57,226 nt of DNA. It comes from an uncultured Clostridia bacterium (GTDB lineage: Bacteria; Bacillota; Clostridia; Lachnospirales; Lachnospiraceae). Position 1 is the first letter of the stretch. Each line of letters begins with the position of its first letter. The translations under genes were made by a program, and so were the position numbers. Below, piece by piece: positions 27,865-48,639 of the stretch. Under the pieces are notes generated by a model. The model saw nothing but the letters and a program-made list of their open reading frames with translations, had not been told where the DNA came from and made no database searches. The DNA lies in assembly GCA_948467395.1 (NCBI GenBank), contig CAOKDX010000021.1, positions 1-57,226 on the forward strand, given 5' to 3'.

Positions 27865-28569
27865 TTAGTATTTGATGGTACCACTTGATGTATACGTCTT
27901 CTTGCCTGTATTTACCGCAATCTGATTTGCGCACTGATTGCTCAGGCTGGTGGCCTTCTGTGAAAGACGTGAAGCAAAAGATACACCGCCGGAAAATGCC
28001 GACTTAATCGTGCTCATCTGTGCCTTCTTGAATTTGTCCTCATCCAGGGAAAGGGTATTGTCCTCATTGATGGAAATCCCCATCTTGCCCAGTATACCGG
28101 AAGATTTACTTACATTTCCGGTCATCCATAACGTGGTCTGAAGAATCGAATAGGAGTTGAGATTCTTCGCCGCATTTACGGTACTGTTGTAGCTGGATAC
28201 CAGGCTCTTTACATCCTCCAGCATGTCTTCCGGTGATTCCACCTTACTGTAATCAGTCTTCTGAAGCTTCGCTACAGACTCATTCAGCTTCTGGGACGCG
28301 CTCTTCATCGTAGAAAGATTTGCCGCACTGTCCGCCTTGCCGGATTCTTTGATGGACTCTTTGCTGTCTTCTGACTTCTTTACAGGATTCTTTGCATAAT
28401 ACGCCTTCAGCGCCTTTTTATACGAACCGCTCTTGATCATCTGAAGATCCATGATAGATGAGGATAACATAGAAGATGAACTACCGCCAGCTGAACCTGT
28501 TCCCATATAACTATCAAAAAAACTGTAGGAATCCGAATAAGAATTTACACCGTCAAAAAAATTACTCAT
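27865..28569 (-). CDS. FliD-like / structural Ser-rich protein of unknown function
   Basis: 234 aa from ATG eight bases after AAAGGAG. The N-terminal 45 residues are Ser/Tyr/Gly-rich low complexity (SYSDSYSFFDSYMGTGSAGG). Residues about 55-110 are Lys/Glu-rich and helical. The second half resembles the conserved core of flagellar cap protein FliD (VESPEDMLEDVKSLVSSYNS, then LGKMGISINEDNTLSLDEDK). There is no signal peptide, no flagellar gene in the window, and true FliD is over 450 aa. It may be a secreted or surface filament relative; function unassigned. Confidence 0.6.
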   Translation of the reverse strand: MSNFFDGVNSYSDSYSFFDSYMGTGSAGGSSSSMLSSSIMDLQMIKSGSYKKALKAYYAKNPVKKSEDSKESIKESGKADSAANLSTMKSASQKLNESVAKLQKTDYSKVESPEDMLEDVKSLVSSYNSTVNAAKNLNSYSILQTTLWMTGNVSKSSGILGKMGISINEDNTLSLDEDKFKKAQMSTIKSAFSGGVSFASRLSQKATSLSNQCANQIAVNTGKKTYTSSGTIKY

Positions 28570-28682
28570 AACAACCACTCCTTTGAACTATTCAATTTTG
28601 GTCATCCATTACCATATTGTATATCGGCACTTTTCATAAGTCTCTTTACCAGTTATTTCAAAATAAAAGCAAAACTTTTATA

Positions 28683-29948
28683 TTAAGGCGGTCCAATCTC
28701 AATCTGAAACACCAGCCAGTTCACCTGCTCCCACTCCTCGTTGCAAACCTTCAGTTCACCGTCATACTGATTTACAATGAGAGCCAGGGATGCCAGCCCC
28801 AGTCCTCTCCCTGTACCCTTAGAGCTGTAACCGCTCTTCGTAAACTTCACGATATCTCCCTGAGGGACATACTCGGATGTATTCCTTACAATAATCCGTA
28901 TCGCTCTCCCAGTCTCCGCCAGCTCTACATATATCTGTCCGTCCTCCTGATGCTCCAATGCCTCCACCGCATTATCAATCAGGATCCCCAGCAGCTCAAT
29001 GACATGATATTCCGGAATTCGGAGCGTGTCTTCACCCGCAGTCTTTACAGAATAACTGATCCGGCAGCCCATTTCCTGTGCCCTGTCAAATTTCGAGTAA
29101 AGAAATCCCGCAAGAACCGGGGATTGGAGGGATAGCAGCCGATTGTACTGGTTATGCTTTTCCAGTTCACCCCGGTACAGGCTCTGCCGCCGGATCAGCT
29201 CCTCCACCGTATCTGCCGTTTTATATACCCCGCACAATGCCACAAGATGATTGTCAAATTCGTGCTGCCGCATCCTCACCGACTGTACCAGATCCTGGTA
29301 AGATCCCTCATAGGCTTTCTGAAGCTCCATTTCCCTGTTCTTAATACTGATTTCTGCCCTCCCCTTCTGCCACATAACGGCAAGAATACAGATAAGCACC
29401 GTCCACAATCCAAATATGATATAATCTGTAATCCTCAGGGAATCGTCAAATTTCAGTGTAATAATAAGATAGGCGGCGCCCAGCCCACAGCAGAAAATAA
29501 TTCCCCTGACCAGCCAGTCGTGATTCCGTATCAATTTCATTATTTTCCAAAGAAATCGTTTCCTCCCCACATATGCTGTCACAAGGCAGGAACAAATATT
29601 GGCCAACAATACAAGAATATCAACAAAAAACGGATTTTCGGCAAAATAGGCCGGGATGGCAAAGAACAGCTGAACAACTACGGCATAGACGAACAGAGCC
29701 GCCGCATTTACAATCAGGCCCGCCACACCCGGATGAAATTTGATTACCATATAGGCCGCCATCACCGCATATCCTGCAAATATAAACTTCTCATCCACAT
29801 AACCGGAATTGATCAGATCCAGAATGGCCAGATCGGCCAGAAACATCAGAATATCACAGATATGAAACCGGTACTTCTGCCCGGATATGTAATTGATCCC
29901 AAGAAATAGAAACAAGAGATCAAAGAATCCACTGATCCGGATAAGCAT
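28683..29948 (-). CDS. GHKL-type sensor histidine kinase (AgrC-like)
   Basis: 421 aa, ATG eight bases after AGGAGGG. Six to seven hydrophobic segments fill residues 1-190 with short loops, as in AgrC/peptide-sensing kinases. A coiled segment then carries the phospho-acceptor-like block RMRQHEFDNHLVAL. The ATPase has N box LGILIDNAVEALEH and G boxes GRGLGLASLAL. No LytTR or other response regulator is adjacent; instead two XRE proteins precede it in the same orientation (21-base gap to the nearer one). Confidence 0.85.
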   Translation of the reverse strand: MLIRISGFFDLLFLFLGINYISGQKYRFHICDILMFLADLAILDLINSGYVDEKFIFAGYAVMAAYMVIKFHPGVAGLIVNAAALFVYAVVVQLFFAIPAYFAENPFFVDILVLLANICSCLVTAYVGRKRFLWKIMKLIRNHDWLVRGIIFCCGLGAAYLIITLKFDDSLRITDYIIFGLWTVLICILAVMWQKGRAEISIKNREMELQKAYEGSYQDLVQSVRMRQHEFDNHLVALCGVYKTADTVEELIRRQSLYRGELEKHNQYNRLLSLQSPVLAGFLYSKFDRAQEMGCRISYSVKTAGEDTLRIPEYHVIELLGILIDNAVEALEHQEDGQIYVELAETGRAIRIIVRNTSEYVPQGDIVKFTKSGYSSKGTGRGLGLASLALIVNQYDGELKVCNEEWEQVNWLVFQIEIGPP

Positions 29949-30420: not shown

Positions 30421-30744
30421 TTAGTGCTCCATGGTCAGTCTGTATGCGGTTTTCAGCAAGGCGTCCACTGTCTCCAGGGTTCCCAGTTTGAACCGGTAAA
30501 TCGTCTTGAAGATCTCATCATCATACCTTCTGGCTCCCTGTCCCGTCATGATGTAATCCAGACTGACTTCCAGCACCTCTGCCATCCTCTGAAGGGTATG
30601 GGATGAAAAGCCCTTTTTGTCATTTTCAATTTCATACAAAAATTTTGCGGAGATTCCGGTTAATTCAGCCATAGTCTCTCTTGAAAACCCTCGTTCCGTT
30701 CTTAATAACATAATCCTTGCGCCTACAGAAATTTCATTGGTCAT
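30421..30744 (-). CDS. XRE-family HTH regulator downstream of the biosynthetic cluster
   Basis: 107 aa from the ATG six bases after AGGAGATG. HTH at about residues 5-65 (GARIMLLRTERGFSRETMAE, then SAKFLYEIENDKKGFS, LEVSLDYIMTG). The short helical tail is YRFKLGTLETVDALLKTAYRL. It is 159 bases downstream of the BtrH-like gene and 88 bases before the next XRE gene. Position suggests local control, but no operator could be picked out by eye. Confidence 0.78.
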   Translation of the reverse strand: MTNEISVGARIMLLRTERGFSRETMAELTGISAKFLYEIENDKKGFSSHTLQRMAEVLEVSLDYIMTGQGARRYDDEIFKTIYRFKLGTLETVDALLKTAYRLTMEH

Positions 30745-30903
30745 TTTAATCATCTCCTGGTAGATCGAGCAGCCATAAAGCTATTTCATTTGTCTAAAAT
30801 TTATATAGTAATATTTCACATTTAAATATATAGGTTTTTTTTGAAATACGAAACTGACAATATGTCCTAAGAACAAGTACTATTGTTCCTGGTAAACACA
30901 CAA

Positions 30904-32463
30904 TTACACCTGCCGTTCCTCTACCACATAACTCACAGCCACCACATGCAGATGTGGATTGACTGGCAGCCTCACAGTTTTAATTCTCTGTGCCCTATCT
31001 CCCAAAACTATTTTATTATATGTGATAAATACCTTGGAATTAACAATCTCCCCTGTGGCTTTTTTTGAACATCCCACCTCAATGATATTCCCTGAGCTGC
31101 AATCTGAAATATCATTGGCAGTAATTTTCATTATTGCCTTGTTTCCATTTTCAAATATGACTTTGATCGAATCCTCACATCCCCCCCACTCTGCACAAAG
31201 CAAAAATGCCAGAGAGTAGACAGGAGCACTTTTATTTATAGAAATAATCTGACCCTTACACACAATATTATCATTCTTAGATCTGAAATTTGTCTTAAAT
31301 GTTATCCCATTATATGTAATTCTTTCATAGGCAGCATTTAATAAAATATATTCACCGTCACCTGTCAGGTCACAATCCCTCTTGTCTTGTTCCTGATAGA
31401 TAAAACCCCTGTTATTGCATTTGTCCCTTATATCGACAGGTATGCACTCCATCTTCACTGGCTCGGATAATGGTTGAACTTCCGGGGTTGTACTCCCTTT
31501 TATATAAGATTGCAGGATTTCATATGCCTCCCGTTCAATCTGAACTGCAGACATCAGGATATTATAAACCTTTTCATTAAAGTCCGGCCTCCACCTTGTC
31601 CTTGCTGCTTTGAACATCATGTTCATAACAGTATTCCATTTGCCAATAGAAATATAAAGATAATCAATTACCTGGGATACTTTTTCTTCCAGCTCCTGAA
31701 ATTGCTCCAGAAAAACAATAAATAAATTCCTTCCCTTTATCAATTGCCGGATCCTCGTAATCAATTCAGAATCCAGAACACAATCTACATCCATCTCATT
31801 CTCAAATTCTACGGAGGGGACGAAATATTCTTTAAAAGCATTTGTAAATTGCTCCATCTGATCAAATTGTTCGATAAAATTTACTTCTTTCAAACATACC
31901 ATTTTCAGTAATTCATGATTGGAGTACTTATTTTCGTTTTCTATTTTTACTTCAACATAAAACTTAGATGCTTTCTCTAATAATTCCAAATCTACAGAAA
32001 ATGCTTCCTCAGAAAATTCCGGATCGACGATCCATACTTTTTTATGATCTGGCTCAATTGCTACAGCTACAGCCAAATGTGCGGAATGTTCCCTTTGATA
32101 TAAGAAACCCCAATAGGAATAATAAGTATCCATATGTATGATCGTCGGCAGATCATCCGCAAGATTGCCGTCAATTACTTTCAACAGCTCATCTACATCA
32201 CGTACATCTGTAAATTCAAATCGAACTCCATTAAATTCCAGATACTCCCTGCGGAAGGTCCTTTTCTCCTCTATACAATCTCCCATCTTTCTTCCCTTCG
32301 ATAGGCGCCCTTCCTTCAGGCCAAAATACCATCCACCCGAAAAAGCCTTTGTCAAGTCAATTCCCACTGTCTCACCATAAGCAACAGCAGCATATTCCAT
32401 ACATTCTGGAATAAAAAATTTAACCCTCTTAAGATTTCTTACTTTCAAATTGATTTGTTTCAT
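30904..32463 (-). CDS. BtrH-like acyltransferase-fold protein with C-terminal beta domain
   Basis: 519 aa; the start overlaps the end of the A-PCP gene (ATGA). The N-terminal about 200 residues resemble BtrH_N, a papain/C39-like fold: Cys21 (FIPECMEYAAVAYGE), a DLPTIIHMDTYYSYW strand, His126/His129 (QREHSAHLAVAVAI), Asp147 (VWIVDPEF). BtrH moves an acyl group from a carrier protein to an amine in butirosin synthesis. Residues about 200-330 are helical. Residues about 345-519 look like a beta-sandwich (YERITYNGITFKT, SAPVYSLAFLLCAEWGG), possibly ligand-binding. Its natural donor would be the carrier fused to the adjacent adenylation domain. The family call is from pattern recognition; a peptidase remains possible. 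Confidence 0.55.
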   Translation of the reverse strand: MKQINLKVRNLKRVKFFIPECMEYAAVAYGETVGIDLTKAFSGGWYFGLKEGRLSKGRKMGDCIEEKRTFRREYLEFNGVRFEFTDVRDVDELLKVIDGNLADDLPTIIHMDTYYSYWGFLYQREHSAHLAVAVAIEPDHKKVWIVDPEFSEEAFSVDLELLEKASKFYVEVKIENENKYSNHELLKMVCLKEVNFIEQFDQMEQFTNAFKEYFVPSVEFENEMDVDCVLDSELITRIRQLIKGRNLFIVFLEQFQELEEKVSQVIDYLYISIGKWNTVMNMMFKAARTRWRPDFNEKVYNILMSAVQIEREAYEILQSYIKGSTTPEVQPLSEPVKMECIPVDIRDKCNNRGFIYQEQDKRDCDLTGDGEYILLNAAYERITYNGITFKTNFRSKNDNIVCKGQIISINKSAPVYSLAFLLCAEWGGCEDSIKVIFENGNKAIMKITANDISDCSSGNIIEVGCSKKATGEIVNSKVFITYNKIVLGDRAQRIKTVRLPVNPHLHVVAVSYVVEERQV

Positions 32464-34193
32464 TTTGATCTCTCCGTTTCTCTCAGATGGTCAAAGTATT
32501 GAATGATATCGCCTATGGTAGAAAACGAACCAGATGCCAGGTATTCATCATCTATTTCTATACCCAATTCTTCTTCCGCTTGTACAATAAAATTTATATA
32601 TGTCAGAGAATCTATTCCTAATGTTTCTATTGGCGTATGATCCTGAATATTTCCTTTTTCTGTTTCTAATAGGCCACCAAAGCACTGAATCACCCATTGC
32701 CTGCTCCCACATTTCTTATCCTGTCGGTTTTCTGACTCTTCATCATATTCTTTACAATACCTGTGGACCATTGCACTCCGGTCTATCTTAGCACTGATGG
32801 TATATAGAAAGTCATCTACTTTTACAAAGCGGGCAGGCAGCATATAGGAAGGTAATTTATCTCCTAACGCTTTGCGGAGATCATCCCCTGCCCTCTCTTC
32901 CCTGGCAGTATAAAAACAGATAATCTTCTTTCCATGAGTATCCTCCTTCAGGCAGGATACGGCATTCGTGATATATGATATCTGTTTCATACATTCATCA
33001 ATCTCCTCCAATTCAATTCTATGACCAAGTATTTTTATCTGATTGTCTTTTCGGCCAAAACATAGATAATTACCATCACCTTTTTTGCAGCCCAGATCCC
33101 CAGTCTTATAAATTCTGGCGGTCTGCCTGCCAAACTGTAAAGTTTTAAAAGATTTCTGAGTCTGCTCTTCATTATTTCTATATCCCCTGGCTACTCCCCT
33201 GCCGGAAATACAGATCTCTCCCATCTGCCCTTCTTCTGCTATTTGCTCATTTTCAGACAAAATAAACACTTCTGTCCCACTGACAGGCTGGCCAATCACT
33301 ACTTCCCTGGAGTTTGTCAGATCTGCAACAAGAGACCAGATGGTAGTCTCTGTCGGACCATACATGTTATATATTCTTGCTTTAGTTACTGCCCTCAGTT
33401 TCTCCAAAAGTAATAGTGGGAAACTCTCGCCTCCCACCATGATTACCGCCATCTTTTCCAGACAATGATATTCTGGGTCTACTGACTGTATCATCTGCAG
33501 ATAGGAGGGAGTCATTTGAATCACATTCACATCTTCATCCTGCAAAAGTTTACATACCATCCTAGGATTTTTCCGTTCATCCTGATCTGCCAGTACAACA
33601 GTCATGCCAGTACACAGGGCAAGAACGGATTCCAGGAAAAATATGTCGAACATTTCACTGGTGCAGCATGCAATCCGGCTTTCCGCCGGGAAATCAATTC
33701 TCTCCAGCATAGCCGAAATGAAATTGAGAAGCCCCTCCCTACGTACTTCCACAGCCTTTGGCCTGCCCGTCGTTCCTGATGTAAAGAGTAAATAAGCCAG
33801 CTCCTGTCTTCCCGCAGGTATGCCTGTGACTGGTTCCGGCGGAATCTCAAGATCCGTTTGATCAAAAAATAGAACCGGACAATCTACTTTCCTTTCCTGT
33901 ATCCATTCACCATCGGTTATGATATAATCAATCTCTGCCGTATCGAGCATATATTGCAGTCGTTCTGCCGGAAGTTCTCTGTCTATGGGCAGAAAGACAA
34001 CTCCCTGATCCAGTAATGACATAACCGCCGTCAAGAGCCTTGGCGTTCGTTCCATTGCCAAGGCAATTGTCGATGTTGTATGTATGTTTTCTCTTTGCAG
34101 GAAAACATCAAATTTCTTTTTCAATCGACAGAGTTCTTCTGTTTCCCACAAAACATTGTTATATACAATATTCCCATGGATTACAAAATCCAA
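32460..34193 (-). CDS. NRPS adenylation-carrier (A-PCP) didomain, predicted glycine-specific
   Basis: 577 aa. Adenylation core motifs: A3 LLFTSGTTGRPKAV (about 135-148), A4 EMFDIFF, A5 YGPTE, A7 YKTGDL, A8 GRKDNQIKILGHRIELEEI, A10 lysine in ISAKIDR. The carrier at about 500-577 has LGIDSL with Ser529 for phosphopantetheine. By manual alignment to GrsA the pocket reads D183 I184 L187 Q226 M252 G254 M277 I285 W286 plus the A10 Lys, nearly the glycine code DILQLGMIWK. There is no condensation or thioesterase domain, so the loaded aminoacyl group must be taken by a separate enzyme, most simply the coupled BtrH-like protein. A short N-terminus (about 12 residues before the domain) shows it is a stand-alone loading module. 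Confidence 0.88.
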   Translation of the reverse strand: MDFVIHGNIVYNNVLWETEELCRLKKKFDVFLQRENIHTTSTIALAMERTPRLLTAVMSLLDQGVVFLPIDRELPAERLQYMLDTAEIDYIITDGEWIQERKVDCPVLFFDQTDLEIPPEPVTGIPAGRQELAYLLFTSGTTGRPKAVEVRREGLLNFISAMLERIDFPAESRIACCTSEMFDIFFLESVLALCTGMTVVLADQDERKNPRMVCKLLQDEDVNVIQMTPSYLQMIQSVDPEYHCLEKMAVIMVGGESFPLLLLEKLRAVTKARIYNMYGPTETTIWSLVADLTNSREVVIGQPVSGTEVFILSENEQIAEEGQMGEICISGRGVARGYRNNEEQTQKSFKTLQFGRQTARIYKTGDLGCKKGDGNYLCFGRKDNQIKILGHRIELEEIDECMKQISYITNAVSCLKEDTHGKKIICFYTAREERAGDDLRKALGDKLPSYMLPARFVKVDDFLYTISAKIDRSAMVHRYCKEYDEESENRQDKKCGSRQWVIQCFGGLLETEKGNIQDHTPIETLGIDSLTYINFIVQAEEELGIEIDDEYLASGSFSTIGDIIQYFDHLRETERSK

Positions 34194-34213
34194 AAAACCA
34201 CCATCCCTCTATT

Positions 34214-35866
34214 TTACAGATAGATCAGCCTGTCACACAGGTTCAATGACGATGCCCGATGTGATACCACGATAATTGTTTTATCCCGGCCAATCTCCTT
34301 TATCGCCTGCTGCACCTCATTTTCTGCATGTTGATCCAACGCACTTGTTGCCTCATCAAAGATAAACATATCAACATCCCTCAAAAACAGCCGTGCCAAA
34401 ACAAGCCGCTGCTTTTGTCCGCCGGACAGCTTAATGCCCTTCTCGCCAATCACCGTCTCATATCCGTCAGGCAATCCATCGATAAATTTATCTATAAATG
34501 CCCGTTTGCAGGCTTTTTGCATATCCGCTTCTGTCGCACTTTCATCCCCATATAATAAATTTTCACGAATTGTTGTATGAAACAATAGATTCTCCTGCAG
34601 AACAAAACCAACTTTTCTATGGACTGCCTGCAATGAAATCTGCTTGATATTGTAATTTCCAAATAAAATATTGCCAGATGTTGGTTCCAGCATACCTACT
34701 ATCATTTTTAATAGTGTAGTCTTCCCGCGTCCGCTCTCTCCCACGATACCTACCCTTTCTCCCTGATGGATCTTCATGGAAAAATCATTCAGTACTTCCA
34801 AGCCACCATCTTCATAAGAAAATGTTACATGGTCAAAGACCAGTTCACAACTGGGAAGATCCGAAACCAGTTTTTCTTCCTCCACAGGATTTTCTTCCAA
34901 AGCAGAAAGTGCCCTGTCATAATAAACAGTCCCCTCCTGTAAATCTGTGTCCGCAGTGACTACTGCCTGGACGGTATCTACCAGCTGCGAATAATACTGG
35001 GCAAACACAAGCAATGCACCTATCGTTATATTTCCATGGAAAATCAGCAGCCCGCCAAGAAAATACAGCAAAAACTGCATCAGGAACTCATCCTTTATCT
35101 TGGGAATGATCATTACCCTTGCCACCCAGTATTCAATAAAGACTAAAAACAACCGGGAATATTTTTCTGCATAAGACATAAACCTACCCTGGCAGGTATC
35201 CTCCAAGTTCAATGCACGGATTTCCCGCCAGCCATTTAACGCAGAATCTATGTAGCCCCCCATTGCTTCGTCATTGTGCCAGATCTTTTCATCGTTCCTT
35301 CTGGCCTTTTTCCCGATCACATGATTGATCCAGAAGGTAATCGGAATTGCTATGATAAGAATAAGGGCCAGATGCCATTCCAGAACAAATAATAGGGCAA
35401 ACAATAGAATCATTTTTAAGAAATTAATGAAATACTCCGTCGTCTGTATATTGGTAAAATCGCGTACTCTCAAAACCGCGTCGTCAATAACCATTTTCTT
35501 CTCGCCCACATTTATTTTTTCATATTCTGTAAAGGGCTGTTTCAATAGATTTTCTAATATTTTAAGCTTCATCTTCACTGTCACCTGGTTATTTACCCGG
35601 TATTGACAATAATTCCGCAAAAATGTAATTCCGGTATTCATAAGCTGAATACTGGCATATCCTATTATAACCGGAAACAGGAAAACCAGCTTCTGGCCCA
35701 GAATTACCTTCTCTATAAACATGCTGTAAAACAGTGGAACAGCTAATCCCAAAAACAAAACTATAACTGCAGCGCAAAAATTTACGATATATAACTTCTG
35801 CACACCCGCTGCATATGACCGCAGCCTGCGAATAACTCGAATTCTATACTTTATCTTATTAATCAT
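34214..35866 (-). CDS. ABC half-transporter (TMD-NBD), first of a pair
   Basis: 550 aa, ATG after GAGGAGATAGG, overlapping the previous gene by ATGA. Six membrane helices (about 25-300, for example IVNFCAAVIVLFLGLAVPLF, FLKMILLFALLFVLEW) then a nucleotide-binding domain with Walker A GESGRGKTT, Q loop FVLQEN, signature LSGGQKQR, Walker B MFIFDEA and H loop SHR. It ends soon after the H loop, so the NBD is a little short. There is no C39 peptidase domain. It probably dimerises with the neighbouring half-transporter as an exporter of the cluster's product. Confidence 0.9.
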   Translation of the reverse strand: MINKIKYRIRVIRRLRSYAAGVQKLYIVNFCAAVIVLFLGLAVPLFYSMFIEKVILGQKLVFLFPVIIGYASIQLMNTGITFLRNYCQYRVNNQVTVKMKLKILENLLKQPFTEYEKINVGEKKMVIDDAVLRVRDFTNIQTTEYFINFLKMILLFALLFVLEWHLALILIIAIPITFWINHVIGKKARRNDEKIWHNDEAMGGYIDSALNGWREIRALNLEDTCQGRFMSYAEKYSRLFLVFIEYWVARVMIIPKIKDEFLMQFLLYFLGGLLIFHGNITIGALLVFAQYYSQLVDTVQAVVTADTDLQEGTVYYDRALSALEENPVEEEKLVSDLPSCELVFDHVTFSYEDGGLEVLNDFSMKIHQGERVGIVGESGRGKTTLLKMIVGMLEPTSGNILFGNYNIKQISLQAVHRKVGFVLQENLLFHTTIRENLLYGDESATEADMQKACKRAFIDKFIDGLPDGYETVIGEKGIKLSGGQKQRLVLARLFLRDVDMFIFDEATSALDQHAENEVQQAIKEIGRDKTIIVVSHRASSLNLCDRLIYL

Positions 35867-37620
35867 GAGCCTATCTCCTCACTTATAGCAAATAATGTAC
35901 GAAACTCCTCACTTGTTTGCTCCAGCTCTCTCGGCGTCCCTGTCTCCACTACCTGACCCCCGCGGAGGATTACCACACGGTCACAAAGCATAACGGAGCT
36001 CTGCCTGTGGGCAATAATGATGGATGTCCTGTTCTTTAGAACTTCCTTCCATGCCCTATGGATCTGTTCTTCTGTCTCCGTATCCAGAGAAGCAGTTGCT
36101 TCATCAAATACAATGATCGACGGATCTTTCAGATAAATCCTTGCAATCGCAATTCTCTGCTTCTGTCCCCCTGATAACTGTCTCCCCTCCCGTCCCAGAA
36201 GGGTATCAAATTTATTCTCCATCTCCATGGCGAAATCATACACTCCGGCGGCTTTACAAGCCTGCATAAACGCTTCCTCTGTAGCTTTTTCATTTCCAAG
36301 CATGATATTATAACGGATCGTCCCATCAAAGATCAGAACATCCTGCTGGACGACCCCTATATTGCTACGGATTGATTCCAGTGTACATGCAGCCGTATCC
36401 ATATGGTCGATCAGAATCCTTCCACTATCTACATGATAAAAGCCAAGAAGCAGATAGCTTAATGTTGTCTTGCCACAACCGGATTCCCCTGCCAGGGCAA
36501 TTTTTTCACTCTTCTTTATTTTCAGGCTGAATCGGTGTAATACAGATTCTTTTCCCGGATAGGCAAAAGAAATATCCTGAAACTCAATTTCCCCATCCTT
36601 CACCGATAATTCTGCGCGGCGGTGAGACTCTTCCACAACCGGGCGTTCCATAAAATCCTTTATCCTCTCAATAACCGAAATGCGCTCCTGTGCATCCATA
36701 TATCTGCTGCTGACATTTTCCAAGGCATCTGTCAAAGAATCGAAATAGGTAAGGATGACAATGACAGAACCGATTAATACCCCTTGATAAACGGCAAGCA
36801 CTGCCAGTACAGCATATAAAACCATCTGTATCCACGTATTTACATTTGCAATTATATTCTCCGCCTTAAGTGTTTCAACACTGGCATTGATATCTGTCTC
36901 AATCATTGTTTCCTGATGCTTATAAAAAATTTTTCTTACCCTGTTTTCCGCTCCCAGCAGGCGGATATCTTTTAAGGCATGAAAGACCTCATACAGCCAG
37001 CTGAGATATCTGCCATATACAGCTTGATTCCGGTCTCTTTCCTTACGGATTTTTTTACCAAATTTCCATGATACAAACACAGATACCGGAACCATAAAAA
37101 CCATAATCAGTGCGATCCACGGATCGATAAGGAAGGAAATCACCAGACAGGCAACTATCCTGATATAGTTATTGATATTATGGATTATATTTCTTACAAT
37201 AAAATGTACACATTCCATAACCCTCCACTGGATCATCTGCGCTATATCTCCATAATTGGAGTCAAGCATTGCCTTTGCATCCATTTTCAGCACGACAGAA
37301 AACATCCGGCAGCGCATCCGGTAAATGAGTTCGTTCCAAAAAACACCATACATTTCATAGAGCAGAAAATACAGTACACTGGTAAACACAGATAGGGCAA
37401 AAAAGACAATACCAATAACAATGAATAAGGACAAATTCCGGTAATATACAATTTGGTTTACCATAACGCCAAATAGCACCGGCGTCACCACTTCTGCCAC
37501 AGTGTCAAACAGCCACCCAAAATAGAACAACGCTAATTTAAAATGAAGCTTGTCCAGAAATCTATTGATAAATTTTACTGCTCCCCAAAAAGTCATTTTC
37601 GTTTTAGCTTGATCTCCCAT
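35863..37620 (-). CDS. ABC half-transporter (TMD-NBD), second of a pair
   Basis: 585 aa from the ATG five bases after GGAGG (a GTG four codons earlier overlaps it). Six membrane helices (about 20-300, including LALFYFGWLFDTVAEVVTPV), NBD with Walker A GESGCGKTT, VVQQDVL, signature LSGGQKQR, Walker B IVFDEA and AHRQSS. A full-length B-type exporter half. It is translationally coupled to the first half-transporter and overlaps the small HlyD-like gene by 17 bases, so the three are probably made in concert. Confidence 0.92.
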   Translation of the reverse strand: MGDQAKTKMTFWGAVKFINRFLDKLHFKLALFYFGWLFDTVAEVVTPVLFGVMVNQIVYYRNLSLFIVIGIVFFALSVFTSVLYFLLYEMYGVFWNELIYRMRCRMFSVVLKMDAKAMLDSNYGDIAQMIQWRVMECVHFIVRNIIHNINNYIRIVACLVISFLIDPWIALIMVFMVPVSVFVSWKFGKKIRKERDRNQAVYGRYLSWLYEVFHALKDIRLLGAENRVRKIFYKHQETMIETDINASVETLKAENIIANVNTWIQMVLYAVLAVLAVYQGVLIGSVIVILTYFDSLTDALENVSSRYMDAQERISVIERIKDFMERPVVEESHRRAELSVKDGEIEFQDISFAYPGKESVLHRFSLKIKKSEKIALAGESGCGKTTLSYLLLGFYHVDSGRILIDHMDTAACTLESIRSNIGVVQQDVLIFDGTIRYNIMLGNEKATEEAFMQACKAAGVYDFAMEMENKFDTLLGREGRQLSGGQKQRIAIARIYLKDPSIIVFDEATASLDTETEEQIHRAWKEVLKNRTSIIIAHRQSSVMLCDRVVILRGGQVVETGTPRELEQTSEEFRTLFAISEEIGS

Positions 37621-38023
37621 TTTCTCCTCCACTTGTAAAAATCAGGTTTAATAACGTCTGTTGTCCTGTCTGGATATCCAAAAAAATTTCTCCTTCTCTG
37701 ATATGTTTGCCTAGTTCATGATTCTTCAGTAAAATGTATCTTCCATCAATTTCATAAGAAGAGACCTCCTCCATTGAGTCCTCCCTTGATTGATACATAT
37801 ATATAGGCGAGTTTTGCCATACCACTGCCTCTTTTCGATCCATCCTTATCCCATTTTCTACTTTTTCTATACTCGTCTTAACAGAAGTGTAGACAGGAAC
37901 CTGTATTTGAGATGTAACACCAAAAAATGCCGCCGCTCCCAACATAAGAAAGACCACAAAACCGATCGGGTGAACTACAAACAATATTCGCCAGGTTTTT
38001 TCTCGTTTCTCCATATGTTCCAT
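37604..38023 (-). CDS. Small one-TM membrane-fusion-like protein
   Basis: 139 aa, ATG nine bases after GGAGG. A cytoplasmic N-terminus (MEHMEKREKTWRI), one membrane helix (VVHPIGFVVFLMLGAAAFFGV), then about 100 extracytoplasmic residues of beta type (VVWQNSPIYMYQSRE, HELGKHIREGEIFLDIQTG). The last segment resembles the half lipoyl/barrel motif of HlyD-type adaptors but is far shorter (HlyD is about 400 aa). Placed directly before the two ABC genes and overlapping one, it is probably a transporter accessory. No closer family recognised. Confidence 0.6.
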   Translation of the reverse strand: MEHMEKREKTWRILFVVHPIGFVVFLMLGAAAFFGVTSQIQVPVYTSVKTSIEKVENGIRMDRKEAVVWQNSPIYMYQSREDSMEEVSSYEIDGRYILLKNHELGKHIREGEIFLDIQTGQQTLLNLIFTSGGENGRSS

Positions 38024-38037
38024 TTATAATCGCCTCC

Positions 38038-39072
38038 TCATAAGTTGTTTCTGATATAGAAGACATGGTCATATAGCCCCTCCTCCTTACCTATAAGTAT
38101 AGCAAGCATGTCCTCCAGTTTCTGAATATCCGTTACTTTTCCTCGAAAGGAACATTTTAGCAGAACAGTCATAAGCTTTTCCCAGTCTGCAATAAGATCC
38201 TGTAAATATTCAATCGCTTTCTCAACCAAATTGCTGTTTACTTTCTCCCTGATCAATCTTAAAAAAAAAGAAAATAGATACTTCCTCTTTACTGTTTGAT
38301 ACAATTCGCTATGTGCATATCTTAATTCCCCACATCGTATTTTGGGTTCTAAATACACCATTCCTTTCAATTCTTCTCTAATTTTTTGATATACCCTGAC
38401 TCCATACAAAATATTTTTTTCTTTCGGATCTGACGGAAAATATTGGACTAACGAAAGAGATAGATTTTCATAAATCAGTTCTTCCCTATGCTGATTCCAG
38501 CCATCCCGTTCTATAATAGCCCAGTTATTCCTAATAGGAGAACCGCTATATATACTCCCATCCTCTGGGTTAGAAGACTCCCGTGCCATAAGATATTCAT
38601 CCGTTGGAATCTCCCCACAGTAAAAATGAGGCGCATACCAGTCTAATACAGTAATATTGTCAAGGGCCCCTTTGCCTGTTAAAATCAAATTATGCCTGCA
38701 ATGTTTCTCTTTGTAATAAGAAAAATATTGCAGGTAATATCCATCAACACATGTAATAATTGGATACCCTTCCGCCACTCTTCTTAAATTTTCCGCAAGA
38801 ACAATCTCTCCATCCCTTTCATCATCTTTTCGCTGGACTTTATCCAGCTCACTTTTAATTATGCCATTTGCTTTTTCATCATAACAAATAAAATATCTTT
38901 GTTCTTCTATAATCATCCTTGTACTGAGGCTCATGTTGATATAAAAATCATATTCCCTACACTGATAATAATTCAAAATCTCCCGGATACAATTTTGATA
39001 ACAGAAGCCCTCGTATTCTTTATCAAATAGTTTTTCAATATCCATCATCAAACTTGTTTTTCCCATCTCCAT
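38038..39072 (-). CDS. BtrH-like Cys/His/Asp protein, second copy type
   Basis: About 344 aa from the ATG after GAGGTATTT; longer in-frame starts lie inside the SDR gene. The N-terminal part has Cys24/Cys28 (EGFCYQNCIREILNYY), a PIITCVDGYYLQYF strand, His124/His127 (KHCRHNLILTG) and Asp144 (TVLDWYAPHFY). This is the same Cys...His...Asp order and spacing (about 100 residues Cys to His) as the 519-aa protein, although overall identity is low. The C-terminal 130 residues are helical. BtrH relatives act as acyl-carrier:amine acyltransferases; the free ACP and ligase upstream would supply the acyl donor. Inferred from fold pattern and context. Confidence 0.5.
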   Translation of the reverse strand: MEMGKTSLMMDIEKLFDKEYEGFCYQNCIREILNYYQCREYDFYINMSLSTRMIIEEQRYFICYDEKANGIIKSELDKVQRKDDERDGEIVLAENLRRVAEGYPIITCVDGYYLQYFSYYKEKHCRHNLILTGKGALDNITVLDWYAPHFYCGEIPTDEYLMARESSNPEDGSIYSGSPIRNNWAIIERDGWNQHREELIYENLSLSLVQYFPSDPKEKNILYGVRVYQKIREELKGMVYLEPKIRCGELRYAHSELYQTVKRKYLFSFFLRLIREKVNSNLVEKAIEYLQDLIADWEKLMTVLLKCSFRGKVTDIQKLEDMLAILIGKEEGLYDHVFYIRNNL

Positions 39073-39092
39073 AAATACCTCTTTTGCGATAA

Positions 39093-39836
39093 TCAAAATA
39101 TCCTCGAATCCAGATTGAATGCCTGCCCGCTGATCCCGCATATCGCATCCGAGCACAACAATACAATAAAAGAAAGAAAATCATCCAATGCCCCTTTATA
39201 ACTGAGAGTACTCATCCTCTCTGCAATCTGCACCTTATTTGTATTTCCCCTGTTCAGGTCAGTTGTAATATATCCGGGGCAGACTGCATTGACAGCCACA
39301 CCAAAATTCCCCATCTCTTTCGCCAGTGATTTTGTAAGCCCAATAATCCCGGCTTTTGATGCGGCATAGTTGCACTGCCCTTCACTTCCTAACTGTCCCT
39401 TTAACGATGCAATGCTTATAATTTTCCCTTTTCGTTCGGCTATCATGGACCGGGAAATCACTCGGGAACAAAGATAAGCGCTTGTCAGATTTACATTTAT
39501 AATCTCCTGCCATCGGCTCAGGCTCATAAACTGTATGTAGTCATCATCACATTTTCCGGCATTATTGATCAGAATATCAATCCTGCCAAACTTCTGAAGG
39601 GTTTCTTTGTGAAGCCTCACAACATCTGACTCCTTTGTCACATCCGCTTTTACCAGAAGATATTTGCTATTATGAGACTCTAATAATCCACACACTTCCT
39701 CCGCCGCCTGCCTGTTCTCATGATAATTGACAACAACGGCTGCCCCCTCATATGCACACCGCACAGCCATGGCACGGCCTATCCCACGTGATGAACCAGT
39801 AACCAAAATCACTTTATCTTGTAGATTTATCTCCAT
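39093..39836 (-). CDS. SDR-family 3-oxoacyl-ACP reductase (FabG-like)
   Basis: 247 aa, ATG six bases after the ACP stop. Classical short-chain dehydrogenase: TGSSRGIGRAMA for NADP(H), LINNAGKCDD, catalytic Ser (ISIASLKGQ), YAASKAGIIG with Tyr and Lys, and NAVCPGYITTD. Next to a free ACP and a ligase it probably reduces a beta-keto or related acyl group on the carrier. A broken copy of the first 35 codons lies at 56372-56480. Confidence 0.85.
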   Translation of the reverse strand: MEINLQDKVILVTGSSRGIGRAMAVRCAYEGAAVVVNYHENRQAAEEVCGLLESHNSKYLLVKADVTKESDVVRLHKETLQKFGRIDILINNAGKCDDDYIQFMSLSRWQEIINVNLTSAYLCSRVISRSMIAERKGKIISIASLKGQLGSEGQCNYAASKAGIIGLTKSLAKEMGNFGVAVNAVCPGYITTDLNRGNTNKVQIAERMSTLSYKGALDDFLSFIVLLCSDAICGISGQAFNLDSRIF

Positions 39837-39842
39837 ATATGA

Positions 39843-40103
39843 TCAGCCCTTATTGTCATTAATATAATTTAACAGTTCATTATATTTCTTCAGCACCTCG
39901 ATATCCAGATCCTCCAGACCAAATTCTATATCAAATGCCGACTCAATCTCCACGACCAGTTCCACCATCAACAGCGAATCAAGACCGAAATCGGCCATCA
40001 GGTCACATTCCGGATCCAAAAACAGATTTTCTGCCTCCTCTGTAAGATCCATTCTTGCAGTCTTTAAAATAATTTCTCTCAATTTTGTCTCTGTCTCATT
40101 CAT
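39843..40103 (-). CDS. Acyl carrier protein
   Basis: 86 aa from ATG after AGGAGGG. Four-helix acidic carrier with the phosphopantetheine site DFGLDSLLMVELV (Ser43) and the helix III region FGLEDLDIEVL. It overlaps the end of the ligase gene by eight bases, so ligase and carrier are made together; the ligase probably charges it. Not the fatty-acid ACP by context. A frameshifted second copy lies at 56487-56746. Confidence 0.92.
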   Translation of the reverse strand: MNETETKLREIILKTARMDLTEEAENLFLDPECDLMADFGLDSLLMVELVVEIESAFDIEFGLEDLDIEVLKKYNELLNYINDNKG

Positions 40104-41577
40104 TTCCAACCCTCCTGATCTTACCATTATAAGTCTTTTCAATGTGATCTGCCACTTCGATCGCACTTGGAATTTTCTGTATTTCAAGATTTGCCTTACA
40201 ATACTCATAAAGTTCTTTGATATCCAACTTCCCTCCTGCATAAGGCACAATACGCACGGCGGGCACCTCTCCCAGAAGCTCATGTTCCTGGGGATACACA
40301 TAAGCCTCCGATACTGCCGGATGGGTGCGCAGAAGTTCCTCTATCTCCTCTGGATAGATATTCAGCCCCCCTGAGATAATGACATTTTTCTTCCTTCCAA
40401 CGATATACAGGTACCCCTCATCATCAAACCGTCCCATATCCCCTGTGTGAAGCCATCCGTTTACGATTGTCCTTTCTGTTTCATCAGGATGTTTATAATA
40501 ACCCTTCATCACATTTTTTCCTTGTACAACAATCTCGCCGTCAGTACCGGACGGCACCTCCTGATCATATTCATCAAACACCTTTACACTGACACCCGGA
40601 ATCGCTTTTCCGACGGATCCCAGTTTCCTCCTGGCATCTTCCGGCAGCAGGCATGTGACACGGGGGCTGGCTTCTGTCTGCCCATAGGTCTGGACAATGC
40701 CTGTCTCTGGCAGCATCTCAATGGTTCTGGCAAGTATTTCTTCTGAAATACGGCCGCCCCCGAAGCACAGGTACCGAAAGGAGGATAAATGATCCGCTTT
40801 TTGATTGCTTTTCACCAGAAGATACAGCATAGTGGGAATACATGTGGAATTCGTACATTGATATTTCTCTATGTAATGCAGAAACCGCTTCGGGACAAAT
40901 GCCCCATCATAAATAACAATACTCCCGCCCAGATAGAAATGCGTCAGGAACTGTGATGTATTACAATACCCGAAACACATTGGCAGTACGATCAGACTTC
41001 TATCGTCACTATTCAAAGCCAGAGAAGAGATGTTGGATTCAATATTTGAAATCAGGTTTTCATGCGTCAGCATGACTTTCTTCGGGTCACTGGTTGTCCC
41101 TGATGTATGAAGCATGACAGCTACATCATCTTCTCCCTCTGAAGCCTGCCGTTTTTTCTCTGATTCCCTTCCTTTTTTGCCAAAATAACTTTGTTCATAA
41201 GAATCCACATTATATAATAAGATACCCTGGTCCAGCTCCTTTGACGCTACTTCGCAGAGATATGCCAAATGCTGATTGTCAGTTAAAATCAAATTCAATT
41301 CGCAGTAAGCAATGGTACTGAGAATCTGGTTCCTTTTGCTGTTTACTTCTATCGGTACAATCACCCTGTCCATGTAGGCGGCGGAAAAATAAGCGATCAC
41401 ATAATTGACCGAGTTTGATAGGAAGATACCAACATTATGACTGCCTGTGTCCATCAGATTTTCGGAATGGAAAACCACCTGTCTGTGGATATCGTTATAG
41501 GAATACTCATGGTCTTTATAGATCACAGCCGTTTGGGTGCTGTTCCTTTTTCTATGCAAGATGTCTTTCATCCTCAA
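40096..41577 (-). CDS. AMP-dependent acyl-CoA synthetase / acyl-ACP ligase
   Basis: 493 aa. ANL superfamily: VAVMLHTSGTTSDPKKVMLTH (P loop), FGYCNTSQFLTHFYLGG, VQTYGQTEASP, WLHTGDMGRFDDEGYLYIVG, GRKKNVIISGGLNIYPEEIE, and the catalytic Lys near the end (KTYNGKIRR). The start is TTG at 41577 (AGAGGA eleven bases upstream) or ATG two codons later with a worse site. It activates a carboxylic acid as the adenylate and transfers it to CoA or the adjacent ACP; the acid is unknown. Fragments of a near-identical gene occur at 56739-57226. Confidence 0.88.
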   Translation of the reverse strand: MRMKDILHRKRNSTQTAVIYKDHEYSYNDIHRQVVFHSENLMDTGSHNVGIFLSNSVNYVIAYFSAAYMDRVIVPIEVNSKRNQILSTIAYCELNLILTDNQHLAYLCEVASKELDQGILLYNVDSYEQSYFGKKGRESEKKRQASEGEDDVAVMLHTSGTTSDPKKVMLTHENLISNIESNISSLALNSDDRSLIVLPMCFGYCNTSQFLTHFYLGGSIVIYDGAFVPKRFLHYIEKYQCTNSTCIPTMLYLLVKSNQKADHLSSFRYLCFGGGRISEEILARTIEMLPETGIVQTYGQTEASPRVTCLLPEDARRKLGSVGKAIPGVSVKVFDEYDQEVPSGTDGEIVVQGKNVMKGYYKHPDETERTIVNGWLHTGDMGRFDDEGYLYIVGRKKNVIISGGLNIYPEEIEELLRTHPAVSEAYVYPQEHELLGEVPAVRIVPYAGGKLDIKELYEYCKANLEIQKIPSAIEVADHIEKTYNGKIRRVGNE

Positions 41578-42170
41578 CTTTTTGCAATTCCTCTCTTATG
41601 CTGTTATACCGCTCTGACTCCCGGCCAATATTCTTCTTTGCCTCTGCCATCCTTGCCCGTGGATGGAACATACGCGCATAAAAATCCATTTTCCAGTCGT
41701 ATACCTCATCGGAATTGTCCCGTCCCCTATACTGGTCAAGATAACGGACATCATCCGGCTCAAACATGTCCAATATTTTATCGTCGACCGTTTCCGGATA
41801 GAACTTCTCAGTGAAGAATAATGTATGCATAGTTGATCTCCTTTTCCTCCATTGCAAGAAAAAGTTTATGTATCTCATTCTTATGGCAATGGTTTCGCTC
41901 TCTCTCTGATAAAAGCATATAATCCAGCGCCCGTCTCAAAACATATGGAACTCCCAGAATATCTTTAAATTTCTTACATATTACACCATTTACTCGATGG
42001 TTTAAAACAAGGCAAAAAAATCTATCCCAGTCTACATTTTCTTTTGAAATAAGTTCATTGATATGCTCACCCATTTTCTCATTAAAATCTTCTCTAGAAA
42101 GCAATAAAACTATCTGCTCCAGGCTATCGAACTTAGATATCTTTTCTAATAGTGACATTCTATTTTCCAT
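41552..42170 (-). pseudogene. Nucleotidyltransferase (NTP_transf_5) split by an internal deletion
   Basis: Two overlapping open frames: 41808-42170 (120 aa, ATG after GAGGTAAAAAA) and 41552-41830 (92 aa, ATG after AAAGGAG). The first matches the helical N-terminus of NTP_transf_5 proteins (NHRVNGVICKKFKDIL, HKLFLAMEEKEINYA) and breaks exactly where the LKG strand of the catalytic domain should begin. The second matches the family C-terminus (FYPETVDDKILDMFEPDDVR, YDWKMDFYARMFHP). The roughly 150-residue nucleotidyltransferase core with its Asp pair is missing, and the frames differ by one step. A decayed gene is the simplest reading, although both pieces have ribosome binding sites. It is at the upstream end of the ligase-ACP operon. 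Confidence 0.7.
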
Positions 42171-42614: not shown

Positions 42615-43667
42615 TTAAAACAACAATTGACACTTTATTGCATCCGGTAGTTTTCCCATTTTATGAAAAAGAATTGATGCATTATCATACGCCACTTCAT
42701 AAGTTACTAATTTTTCTACCAAATCACTATTTTCTTCCATATACCTGATCACTTCATCAAACTCACCTGTACCACCTATGCTACCCTGAATTGTCAATTT
42801 TTTCATCGTAATCATCTTAGAATTTGTTAATTCACCATCGGATAAACCAACATATGAAATAATCCCAAATGGATTTGTTTCTTCCAGCGCCGAGTCCAAT
42901 CCAGCCACCGTACCCGATGCCTCAAAAATATAGTCAAATCCTTGATTTAAATACCTCTTAGAATACGTGTTATGTTGTTTTCTTTCAGCTTTTAGATTAA
43001 TACAATTGATTCTTCTTTTACCGATTACTTTTTTTGCAGCATCGAACCTCTTCTGATTTATATCTGAAATATACACATTTCTAAATCCATATTTATCTGT
43101 CAAAAACAGATATGCTGCAATTCCAATAACCCCACATCCCTGAACAAGAATATCAGAATCTCTTGAAAGATTAGTTAAATTAACACTTTTTAAAGCATGC
43201 AATGACACCGCAAAAGGTTCAACCAATGCTAGCGCCTTGAATGACAACTTTTTTTCTGATCGATAAATATACTTTTTATTAACTACTACAGATTGCCTTG
43301 AAAATCCATCTAAAGTAATACCAAATTTCTCGATTGACTTACAAATATTTTTATCACGCTTACAGTTTTCACATTTTCCACACCAACAAGAACAATCTCC
43401 TGTAACATAGTCTCCGACCTTAAAGTCGTTCTCTCCCAAAGCAACCTCAGCCACTTCACCTGACCATTCATGTCCAAATATAATTGGAAAGATATGTGGT
43501 CCTCCATACAAGCCTTCATATAATTTATAATCTGATCCACAAAGACTAATTCTATTAATTCGAATTCTTATGTATCCTCGTTTCAATTTTTCACTATCTT
43601 CCATTACGTCTTCCACATTAATCTGATGTGGACTAACCAATTTTAAACTTTTCATTTTTCTCTCCAT
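42615..43667 (-). CDS. Zinc-dependent alcohol/polyol dehydrogenase (MDR family)
   Basis: 350 aa. GroES-like N-terminus with catalytic Zn ligands (SLCGSDYKLYEG Cys, GHEWSGEV His-Glu), structural Zn cysteines (CWCGKCENCKRDKNIC), and a Rossmann domain (DILVQGCGVIGIAAYLF, then VYISDINQKRFDAAK). Relatives include threonine, sorbitol and inosamine dehydrogenases such as NeoA/BtrE-type enzymes. The substrate cannot be read. Next to an IolI-like isomerase and a cyclase of the inosose-synthase type, a cyclitol or sugar-alcohol substrate is the best guess. AT-rich, unlike the housekeeping region. Confidence 0.87.
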   Translation of the reverse strand: MERKMKSLKLVSPHQINVEDVMEDSEKLKRGYIRIRINRISLCGSDYKLYEGLYGGPHIFPIIFGHEWSGEVAEVALGENDFKVGDYVTGDCSCWCGKCENCKRDKNICKSIEKFGITLDGFSRQSVVVNKKYIYRSEKKLSFKALALVEPFAVSLHALKSVNLTNLSRDSDILVQGCGVIGIAAYLFLTDKYGFRNVYISDINQKRFDAAKKVIGKRRINCINLKAERKQHNTYSKRYLNQGFDYIFEASGTVAGLDSALEETNPFGIISYVGLSDGELTNSKMITMKKLTIQGSIGGTGEFDEVIRYMEENSDLVEKLVTYEVAYDNASILFHKMGKLPDAIKCQLLF

Positions 43668-43723
43668 TTTATTGACTGTGCATAAACTCTATTATTTTTA
43701 ATTTAGACCCTCTTGAACATATT

Positions 43724-44542
43724 TTATATACATCCTTTTAAATATTCCAAACTCTCTTTCAAAGCTTTTTCGTATACTTCCGAATGATGATACAACTCCA
43801 CACTTACATATCCATTATAGTTTTCTTCTTTTAATACTTTTAATACCTTATTGAGTTCTGCTTCACCTTCACCAGGAATTAAGTGAAAATGTACTCTGTC
43901 TCTAATATCTTCAATATGAACATGTACGGCATATTTCACAGCCTTCCTTATTTTTTCTATATAATTATCTTCGCAACAAACTACATGTCCAACATCCAAA
44001 TTTAGCCTAAATCTACCTGATCCAACCATTTTTATTAGCCTAATTGCATCATCTGTTGTACCAATAAACATTCCCGGCTCTGGTTCAATTGCTATAATAA
44101 TGTTCTCACCATATTCTAAAAGACTTTTAATATGGTGTGACAAATTTTTCATTGTACTCTCATAGTCACTATTGTCTTTAAGAAAACCACTTGATATAAC
44201 TACTATGTTTGTTCCTAGGTATTTTGCTATTCTAAAAGCTTTCTGTATGCACGAAATACGTAAATTTCTCTTTGATTTTTCCTTTGTAAGAAGTGAAGGC
44301 TCATATTTTTCTGCACTCAACAAATCAGACGCACCCGTGGCAATATTAGACACTTTTATTTTTTCTTCTGCAAGTACATTCTTTATTTTTTCCAATGAAC
44401 TATCTGTTACTGAAAAAGGATTAAAAGAATCCTTATCCAAAGATAACTCAATCCCATCGTAATTATACCTTGCCACCTCACGTATAGCAGTTAATACATC
44501 TAACGAACGTAAACCATTTGAATTATAAGCAAATTTAAACAT
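43724..44542 (-). CDS. Sugar phosphate isomerase/epimerase, xylose-isomerase-like TIM barrel
   Basis: 272 aa. AP_endonuc_2 barrel with the metal-site pattern: IAIEPEPGMF (Glu), RLNLDVGHVVCCED (Asp, His), HVHIEDIRDR (His) and YVSVELYHHSE (Glu). The family includes IolE/IolI (inosose dehydratase and isomerase), EboE, hydroxypyruvate isomerase and tagatose epimerases. I cannot fix the substrate. It sits with a dehydroquinate-synthase-fold cyclase and an MDR dehydrogenase, a set seen in cyclitol pathways. Confidence 0.8.
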   Translation of the reverse strand: MFKFAYNSNGLRSLDVLTAIREVARYNYDGIELSLDKDSFNPFSVTDSSLEKIKNVLAEEKIKVSNIATGASDLLSAEKYEPSLLTKEKSKRNLRISCIQKAFRIAKYLGTNIVVISSGFLKDNSDYESTMKNLSHHIKSLLEYGENIIIAIEPEPGMFIGTTDDAIRLIKMVGSGRFRLNLDVGHVVCCEDNYIEKIRKAVKYAVHVHIEDIRDRVHFHLIPGEGEAELNKVLKVLKEENYNGYVSVELYHHSEVYEKALKESLEYLKGCI

Positions 44543-44577
44543 ATATCCTCCCTAATCAATAAATTATTCAAAATATT

Positions 44578-45756: not shown

Positions 45757-45757
45757 C

Positions 45758-46918: not shown

Positions 46919-47000
46919 CTTTTATCTGTATGATATTATCTAGTATAACATCACTTTCTCCTTTCCATATGTCTATTCATACCTTGCTATATGTTCTATC

Positions 47001-48503: not shown

Positions 48504-48518
48504 TAAATATCCTCGTAT

Positions 48519-48566
48519 AATAAGTTTGTAAGCAAGAAAAACAGCTTACAGACTTATTCTTTTTTG
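48519..48566 (+). terminator. Strong hairpin with T6 tail at the left flank of the IS110 element
   Basis: AATAAGTTTGTAAGC and GCTTACAGACTTATT pair over 15 bases (one mismatch, 10-base loop), followed by CTTTTTT. There is no plus-strand gene before it in this region. On the minus strand it would be in the leader of the transferase gene. Confidence 0.6.
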
Positions 48567-48639
48567 ATTAGACAGAAGGATAATTCTAAACATCCTTTCC
48601 GAAGATTCTTCTTCAATCATGCTGGTTCATCCATTCTCT

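What the first reader, a model, noticed from the sequence alone, without database searches (positions are those of the whole stretch)
30904..41577. Two parallel activation-carrier-BtrH-like systems with a shared exporter
One compact operon holds A-PCP + BtrH-like protein, and AMP-ligase + ACP + SDR + second BtrH-like protein, with a heterodimeric ABC exporter and a mini HlyD-like protein between. No condensation or thioesterase domain is present, so both loaded groups must be offloaded by the BtrH-like proteins, most simply onto amines of a common acceptor. I know of no described cluster with two such carrier/BtrH pairs; this is my best candidate for a new system, possibly making a lipo- or acyl-aminoacyl small molecule or decorating a peptide or aminosugar.
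Basis: partly seen in the sequence, partly recalled or inferred. Interest (0 to 1): 0.88.

Follow-up and report, generated by a model that had tools for sequence, protein, structure and literature searches.

The report
Two-carrier peptide line lacking condensation domains
A bacterium carries a compact gene set that probably joins an acyl group to glycine on two small carrier proteins using two protease-like enzymes instead of the usual peptide-joining domains, a little-studied way of making small molecules.

Summary
On the minus strand, 41577-30904, lie AMP-ligase, ACP, SDR, BtrH-like protein 2, a one-TM protein, two ABC half-transporters, A-PCP and BtrH-like protein 1; no condensation or thioesterase domain was found in them. 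Both BtrH-like proteins score just under the Pfam BtrH_N cut-off, but their best fold matches are AziU3, CtaG (closthioamide) and CcbD (celesticetin), over nearly all of BtrH2 and the N-terminal part of BtrH1, which also carries an AziU2-like domain. A Cys-His-Asp triad is conserved. The A domain carries a glycine-type code. One near-identical operon was found (L011). Two distant loci (L014, L096) keep the order carrier, BtrH2, exporter, A-PCP, BtrH1, with a tRNA-synthetase-like gene instead of the ligase. I prefer one sequential line (acyl-ACP + Gly-PCP -> acyl-Gly-PCP -> release) over two parallel offloadings; a tree test gave no extra support and nothing is assayed. 'No described cluster' is too strong: closthioamide already combines two carriers, the transferase CtaG and the transglutaminase CtaJ. 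New variant of a known kind; product unknown.

The parts
30904..32463 (-). BtrH1: papain-like transferase (C21/H129/D147) with AziU2-like C-terminal domain
32460..34193 (-). A-PCP didomain, glycine-type code DILQMGMIW
   Evidence: AMP-binding 3.5e-59, PP-binding 2.3e-9; TIGR01733 over cut-off; code by alignment
34214..35866 (-). ABC exporter half-transporter B
   Evidence: ABC_membrane + ABC_tran; 45% identical to its counterpart in L096
35863..37632 (-). ABC exporter half-transporter A
   Evidence: ABC_membrane + ABC_tran; 46% identical to its counterpart in L096
   Evidence: no credible Pfam hit; one hydrophobic segment; 95% identical in L011
38038..39093 (-). BtrH2: papain-like transferase (C31/H134/D151 in this 351-aa reading; the ORF extends to 39156)
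39093..39836 (-). SDR, FabG-like reductase
   Evidence: adh_short 2.5e-57; TIGR01830 3e-63, under its cut-off
39843..40103 (-). stand-alone acyl carrier protein (86 aa)
   Evidence: PP-binding 1.1e-7
40096..41577 (-). AMP-dependent acyl ligase
   Evidence: AMP-binding 1.6e-72, AMP-binding_C 4.8e-13; best NCBIfam model a long-chain fatty-acid-CoA ligase subfamily, under its cut-off
41552..42170 (-). broken NTP_transf_5 nucleotidyltransferase (two overlapping fragments)
   Evidence: PF14907 on the N-terminal fragment, 25.0 bits, under cut-off; intact 389-aa gene in L011; break at about 41822

Best explanation
A condensation-domain-free, two-carrier assembly line. Inferred order: (1) the AMP-ligase activates a carboxylic acid and loads the stand-alone ACP; the SDR probably reduces a carbonyl of the ACP-bound acyl group. 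(2) The A-PCP activates glycine and holds it as Gly-S-PCP. (3) BtrH2 works like CtaG/CcbD: its Cys takes the acyl group from the ACP as a thioester and the amine of Gly-S-PCP attacks it, giving N-acylglycyl-S-PCP. (4) BtrH1, a similar Cys-His-Asp enzyme with an extra AziU2-like domain, takes the acylglycyl group off the PCP and passes it to an unknown amine (or water), releasing the product. (5) The ABC pair exports it. Shown here: the genes, the fold class, the conserved triad, the glycine-type code, conservation of the set. Inferred: which carrier each enzyme serves, the order of steps, the SDR step, the final acceptor.
Against: No activity is shown. Glycine-code clusters do not group on the BtrH2 tree (4 label changes against 4.8 in shuffles, 170 of 500 as low). 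The A domain of L096 has a different code, DVEQIGHVD, and L014 has a different kind of exporter (ATPase plus two ABC-2 permeases), so the shared order is of gene types. L052 has ligase-ACP-SDR-BtrH2 without an A-PCP in view (it starts at a contig end). L012, L013, L015, L016, L053 and L097-L099 have a BtrH2-type gene and an A domain but no BtrH1-type gene in the stretch (L015 has one 19.5 kb away), so enzyme-carrier pairing is not fixed. The AziU3/AziU2 match could mean other chemistry than acyl transfer. A residue-by-residue overlay on CtaG was not possible, and CtaG and CcbD are not reached by sequence profiles. The nucleotidyltransferase is broken and a decayed second ligase-ACP-SDR copy sits at the contig end.
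Confidence: 0.47

Rival explanations
1. Two parallel decorations: BtrH2 moves the acyl group and BtrH1 moves glycine, each from its own carrier, onto amines of a common acceptor such as an aminosugar or peptide.
For: BtrH and CcbD/LmbD transfer from a carrier to an amine of an aminoglycoside or thiooctose (PMC10318531 passages; PMC12945683 passages). Each BtrH gene lies near a carrier gene. In L052 the ligase-ACP-SDR-BtrH2 cassette occurs with other biosynthetic genes (epimerase, radical SAM, ATP-grasp, aminotransferase, APH families) and no A-PCP in view.
Against: No acceptor-making gene is seen beside the operon in the 0.7 kb upstream and 1.8 kb downstream that L011 shows, where a DHDPS-family gene is the only recognised neighbour; a glycine-loaded PCP is itself a natural acceptor; the common order in L014 and L096 suggests one line.
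Confidence: 0.25
2. Same acyl-glycine first step, but BtrH1 does not make an amide: with its AziU2-like domain it performs another release or ring-forming step (hydrolysis, macrocyclisation or a rearrangement on the carrier).
Against: All 17 BtrH1-type ORFs examined, the window's included, keep the Cys; CtaG and CcbD match nearly as well; no sulfotransferase family is listed for the ten proteins.
Confidence: 0.17
3. A decaying or silent remnant: the operon no longer makes a product in this strain.
For: Broken nucleotidyltransferase and a decayed second ligase-ACP-SDR copy in the same contig.
Against: All nine core genes are open with dN/dS of 0.07-0.46 against L011.
Confidence: 0.1

Closest known systems
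Closthioamide pathway (cta, Ruminiclostridium cellulolyticum)
   Same: Two separate carrier proteins, an acetyl-CoA-synthetase-type loader (CtaI), assembly independent of an NRPS, the peptidyl transferase CtaG and the transglutaminase CtaJ (PMC6772006 passages); the CtaG fold matches both BtrH models
   Different: Closthioamide uses an ATP-grasp loader for beta-alanine and an AANH thioamide synthetase; the window operon has a glycine-type A-PCP and an SDR, and BtrH1 has an AziU2-like domain. CtaJ was not compared
CcbD/LmbD of lincosamide biosynthesis
   Same: Carrier-dependent papain-like amide synthase fold; Cys-based ping-pong (PMC12945683 passages)
   Different: Cys-His-Glu triad and a thiooctose acceptor there; Cys-His-Asp here, acceptor unknown, two carriers
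AziU3/AziU2 (azinomycin)
   Different: Reaction there is aziridine formation (recalled); whether AziU3 has the triad Cys was not established here
BtrH of butirosin (PF14399)
   Same: The family profile hits both proteins
   Different: Both under the curated cut-off in hmmscan; no aminoglycoside acceptor genes recognised in the operon
Gut fatty-acid-amide pathway OaaA/OaaACP/OaaC (Coprococcus eutactus)
   Same: Stand-alone adenylating enzyme plus ACP feeding an amide-forming enzyme (PMC13142362, abstract and passages)
   Different: Oaa uses an NRPS condensation domain; here BtrH-like enzymes and a second carrier

Membership tests
Carrier-dependent papain-like amide synthases (CtaG/CcbD class) | fold shared with CtaG and CcbD | tested here: met
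Carrier-dependent papain-like amide synthases (CtaG/CcbD class) | Cys-His-Asp/Glu triad | tested here: met
   BtrH2-type ORFs: Cys 23, His 25, Asp 24 of 26 (misses: two truncated ORFs, L053_4670 with Gly for Cys, L099_7842 with Glu for Asp). BtrH1-type: Cys 17, His 16, Asp 16 of 17 (misses: L050_7349 with Tyr for His, L102_72 with Glu for Asp). Sequence columns only; not overlaid on CtaG
Carrier-dependent papain-like amide synthases (CtaG/CcbD class) | acyl transfer from carrier to amine | not testable with these tools
   needs enzyme assays
Pfam BtrH_N (PF14399) | score at or over the curated cut-off of 29.7 bits | tested here: not met
   27.9 and 27.0 bits in hmmscan, although 30.8 and 28.8 in the six-frame search. 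Relatives in L096 pass with 38.1 and 40.9; those in L014 do not, 27.5 and 18.7
Modular NRPS | A and PCP domains | tested here: met
   TIGR01733 over cut-off
Modular NRPS | condensation domain | tested here: not met
   none listed for the ten proteins; the six condensation-domain matches of the genome lie on other contigs
Closthioamide-type pathway | two carriers with papain-like or transglutaminase-type transferases | tested here: met
   CtaJ itself not compared
Closthioamide-type pathway | ATP-grasp loader and AANH thioamide synthetase | tested here: not met
   neither listed for the ten proteins; genome not searched for them
Gut fatty-acid-amide (Oaa) pathway | stand-alone condensation domain OaaC | tested here: not met
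   none in the operon
AziU3/AziU2 | aziridine formation | not testable with these tools
   fold shared

The most novel reading that the evidence does not exclude
A dedicated, exported N-acylglycine-type signal or antibiotic, probably of gut Clostridia (for example an N-(hydroxyacyl)glycyl amide, with the SDR setting the hydroxyl), made by a portable two-carrier line in which a CtaG-like enzyme replaces the condensation domain and a fused AziU3-AziU2-like enzyme performs a new release chemistry; the same core recurs with interchangeable loading enzymes (AMP-ligase + SDR, or tRNA-synthetase-like) as a family of condensation-free assembly lines.
Probability: 0.17. Interest if true: 0.75.

Novelty: new variant of a known kind. 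Interest (0 to 1): 0.52.

Why it matters
Condensation-free thiotemplated peptide assembly has, to my knowledge, one worked-out example with two carriers, closthioamide. A compact operon with a glycine-type A-PCP, both transferases, both carriers and an exporter would give a small, reconstitutable test of how these enzymes choose donor and acceptor carriers. It would also mean that cluster-finding rules that ask for a condensation domain can miss such pathways.

Tried and rejected
Considered an aminocyclitol (butirosin-like) cluster, because a 3-dehydroquinate-synthase-like gene upstream (45758-46918) has 2-deoxy-scyllo-inosose synthase as its best PDB hit. Rejected as part of the operon: the upstream genes include KDN-9-phosphatase/cytidylyltransferase-, NeuB- and mannose-6-phosphate-isomerase-like genes, start about 440 bases from the operon, and none is seen in the 0.7 kb that L011 shows upstream of its operon, which is a weak test.

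Plasmid or phage cargo: no match to BtrH2 (protein) in plasmids or phages, none to the operon DNA in plasmids.

Glycine code as a marker of one BtrH2 clade: not supported (14 rows, long branches flagged).

AziU3 catalytic Cys: tried with a 22-row profile; the alignment did not reach the N-terminus. CtaG and CcbD do not appear in the sequence-profile searches at E 0.1 or E 1, only by fold. Promoter and terminator scans were within about one and a half standard deviations of shuffles. PMC7898593 and PMC7183216 (closthioamide papers) are not held, so closthioamide details rest on passages of PMC6772006 and PMC8868522. L058 was fetched but not analysed, and the weaker matches were not widened. The small carrier model was built with some of the carriers it then found; the L014, L013, L052 and L099 carriers were therefore checked against Pfam and pass its PP-binding cut-off, while that of L096 is just under it (19.2 of 20.8 bits). 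An earlier count said that regions were fetched; that call failed and fetched them. Entry 2 gives LgrA module 2 as the best PDB hit of the A domain; that score summed two domains, and over the specificity stretch 5u89 and 4zxh are best. Paper searches: (open-licence PMC library only).

Full report
OBSERVATION. The operon is real. The ORF listing gives a tight minus-strand run: AMP-ligase 40096-41577, ACP 39843-40103, SDR 39093-39836, BtrH2 38038-39093, a 139-aa membrane protein 37604-38023, ABC halves 35863-37632 and 34214-35866, A-PCP 32460-34193, BtrH1 30904-32463. Pfam names each except the 139-aa protein, for which 'HlyD-like' is unproven (one hydrophobic segment). BtrH_N hits both BtrH-like proteins at 27.9 and 27.0 bits, under the cut-off of 29.7. 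No condensation or thioesterase family is listed for the ten proteins scanned there. A broken nucleotidyltransferase (PF14907) precedes the ligase; it is whole (389 aa) in L011.

CONSERVATION. The one relative found by the genome-contig scan, which reaches close relatives only, is L011, a contig titled 'Eubacteriaceae bacterium isolate A29_21.EX.DSS ... MGBC000043' (that MGBC is a mouse-gut catalogue is recalled). It has the nine genes in the same order at 86-98% identity. dN/dS is 0.07-0.46 for the nine (point estimates), as expected for genes kept as proteins. dS differs along the operon (0.04 at BtrH1, 0.45 at BtrH2), which suggests recombination. Homology ends at window 30932 on one side, inside the last codons of BtrH1, and identity changes abruptly from 74% to 93% at about 41822 on the other; I infer that the stretch of about 11 kb has moved or been exchanged.

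WHAT IS LOADED. The nine A-domain specificity positions read D-I-L-Q-M-G-M-I-W. In the alignment to 5u89 (recalled as DhbF, glycine-activating) two positions differ, both L to M; 4zxh (recalled as the glycine-activating AB3403) also reads D-I-L-Q-x-G. The same or nearly the same code occurs in L011, L013, L053, L014 and L099: 6 of 15 A domains examined, the window included. That this code means glycine is recalled knowledge. The ligase's acid is unknown: its best NCBIfam model is a long-chain fatty-acid ligase subfamily, under its cut-off. The SDR resembles FabG, under the cut-off; its step is a guess.

RELATIVES. Searches gave matches in 5 of 397 and 9 of 397 genomes of the family (with BtrH2, 27 with BtrH1), 11 of 392 of the order and 13 of 391 of the class, own genome included. 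I widened 27 of these matches and examined 29 stretches in all (with the window and L011; every one chosen because it holds a match). Of the 29, 11 hold two or more BtrH-type ORFs and 7 hold both types: window, L011, L014, L096, L100, L101, L102 (the last three are one genus). In L104 one of the two is a 118-aa piece, and in L053 one lacks the Cys. L051 and L015, parts of one contig, hold one of each type about 19.5 kb apart (positions). L014 and L096 repeat the order carrier, BtrH2, exporter, A-PCP, BtrH1, with a class-II tRNA-synthetase-like gene and a CYTH-type gene in place of ligase and SDR, and an ACPS-family PPTase. They differ too: L096 has another A code (DVEQIGHVD) and L014 an exporter of ATPase plus ABC-2 permeases. 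Identities to the window: L096 BtrH2 34%, BtrH1 23%, ABC halves 46% and 45%; L014 BtrH2 31%, BtrH1 23%. L052 has ligase 53%, ACP 46%, SDR 53%, BtrH2 34% and an NTP_transf_5 gene but begins at a contig end. The own genome has BtrH-type genes on two further contigs, two ACPS-family genes, and condensation domains on other contigs.

MECHANISM. I commit to the sequential model: acyl-ACP plus Gly-S-PCP joined by BtrH2, released by BtrH1, exported by the ABC pair. Reasons: a glycine-loaded PCP offers an amine; closthioamide's CtaG is proposed to do this between two carriers (PMC6772006, passages); in L014 and L096 the two BtrH genes stay with two carriers and one exporter while the loading gene changes. 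Against: the BtrH2 tree does not group the glycine clusters, several relatives have a BtrH2-type gene and an A domain without a BtrH1-type gene, and nothing is assayed.

NOVELTY. Each element has a precedent. A 2022 review says that mining with closthioamide enzymes revealed a diversity of NRPS-independent pathways (PMC8868522, passage), and a 2010 paper names BtrH-family enzymes among predicted transacylases found with ACPs and acyl-CoA ligases in other operons (PMC2922099, passages). My paper searches brought up no description of this gene set, in an open-licence library that lacks two of the main closthioamide papers. So: a new variant of a known kind.

Noticed in passing
window 56382-57226, minus strand: Decayed second copy of ligase-ACP-SDR (ligase pieces 97, 83 and 80% identical, ACP 89% then out of frame, only the first 33 residues of the SDR at 73%), ending directly at the mannose-6-phosphate-isomerase gene; the sugar locus thus sits between a decayed and an intact copy.
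   Followed up: partly
window 42615-56379: Low-GC sugar locus: Zn-ADH, TIM-barrel isomerase, cytidylyltransferase/KDN-9-phosphate-phosphatase-like fusion, 3-dehydroquinate-synthase-like gene whose best PDB hit is 2-deoxy-scyllo-inosose synthase, IS110 transposase, a short (208-aa) radical SAM gene, a pyruvate-kinase-like fusion, NeuB, mannose-6-phosphate isomerase.
   Followed up: partly
L012 2887-12806: BtrH2-type gene and A-PCP beside a gene set resembling that for 3-amino-5-hydroxybenzoate (recalled): GFO/IDH/MocA, ROK, DHquinase_II, DegT, HAD and DHQ_synthase families, plus a PPTase and a thioesterase.
   Followed up: partly
L011 704-1873, L052 5170-6321, L100 10356-11519: NTP_transf_5 nucleotidyltransferase recurs beside BtrH clusters; role unknown, possibly modification or self-protection.
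   Followed up: partly
window 30421-30753 and L057 9206-9544: The XRE-type regulator next to the operon has a 39% identical homologue directly before a BtrH-type gene in L057.
   Followed up: no
L100, L101, L102: Three genomes of one genus carry clusters with three BtrH-type genes, one or two detected carriers, a ligase and an ABC-transporter ATPase.
   Followed up: no
window 27865-29948: A GHKL-type sensor kinase with weak likeness to AgrC, and a neighbouring gene without a Pfam hit that I take for its response regulator, lie beyond the XRE genes.
   Followed up: no
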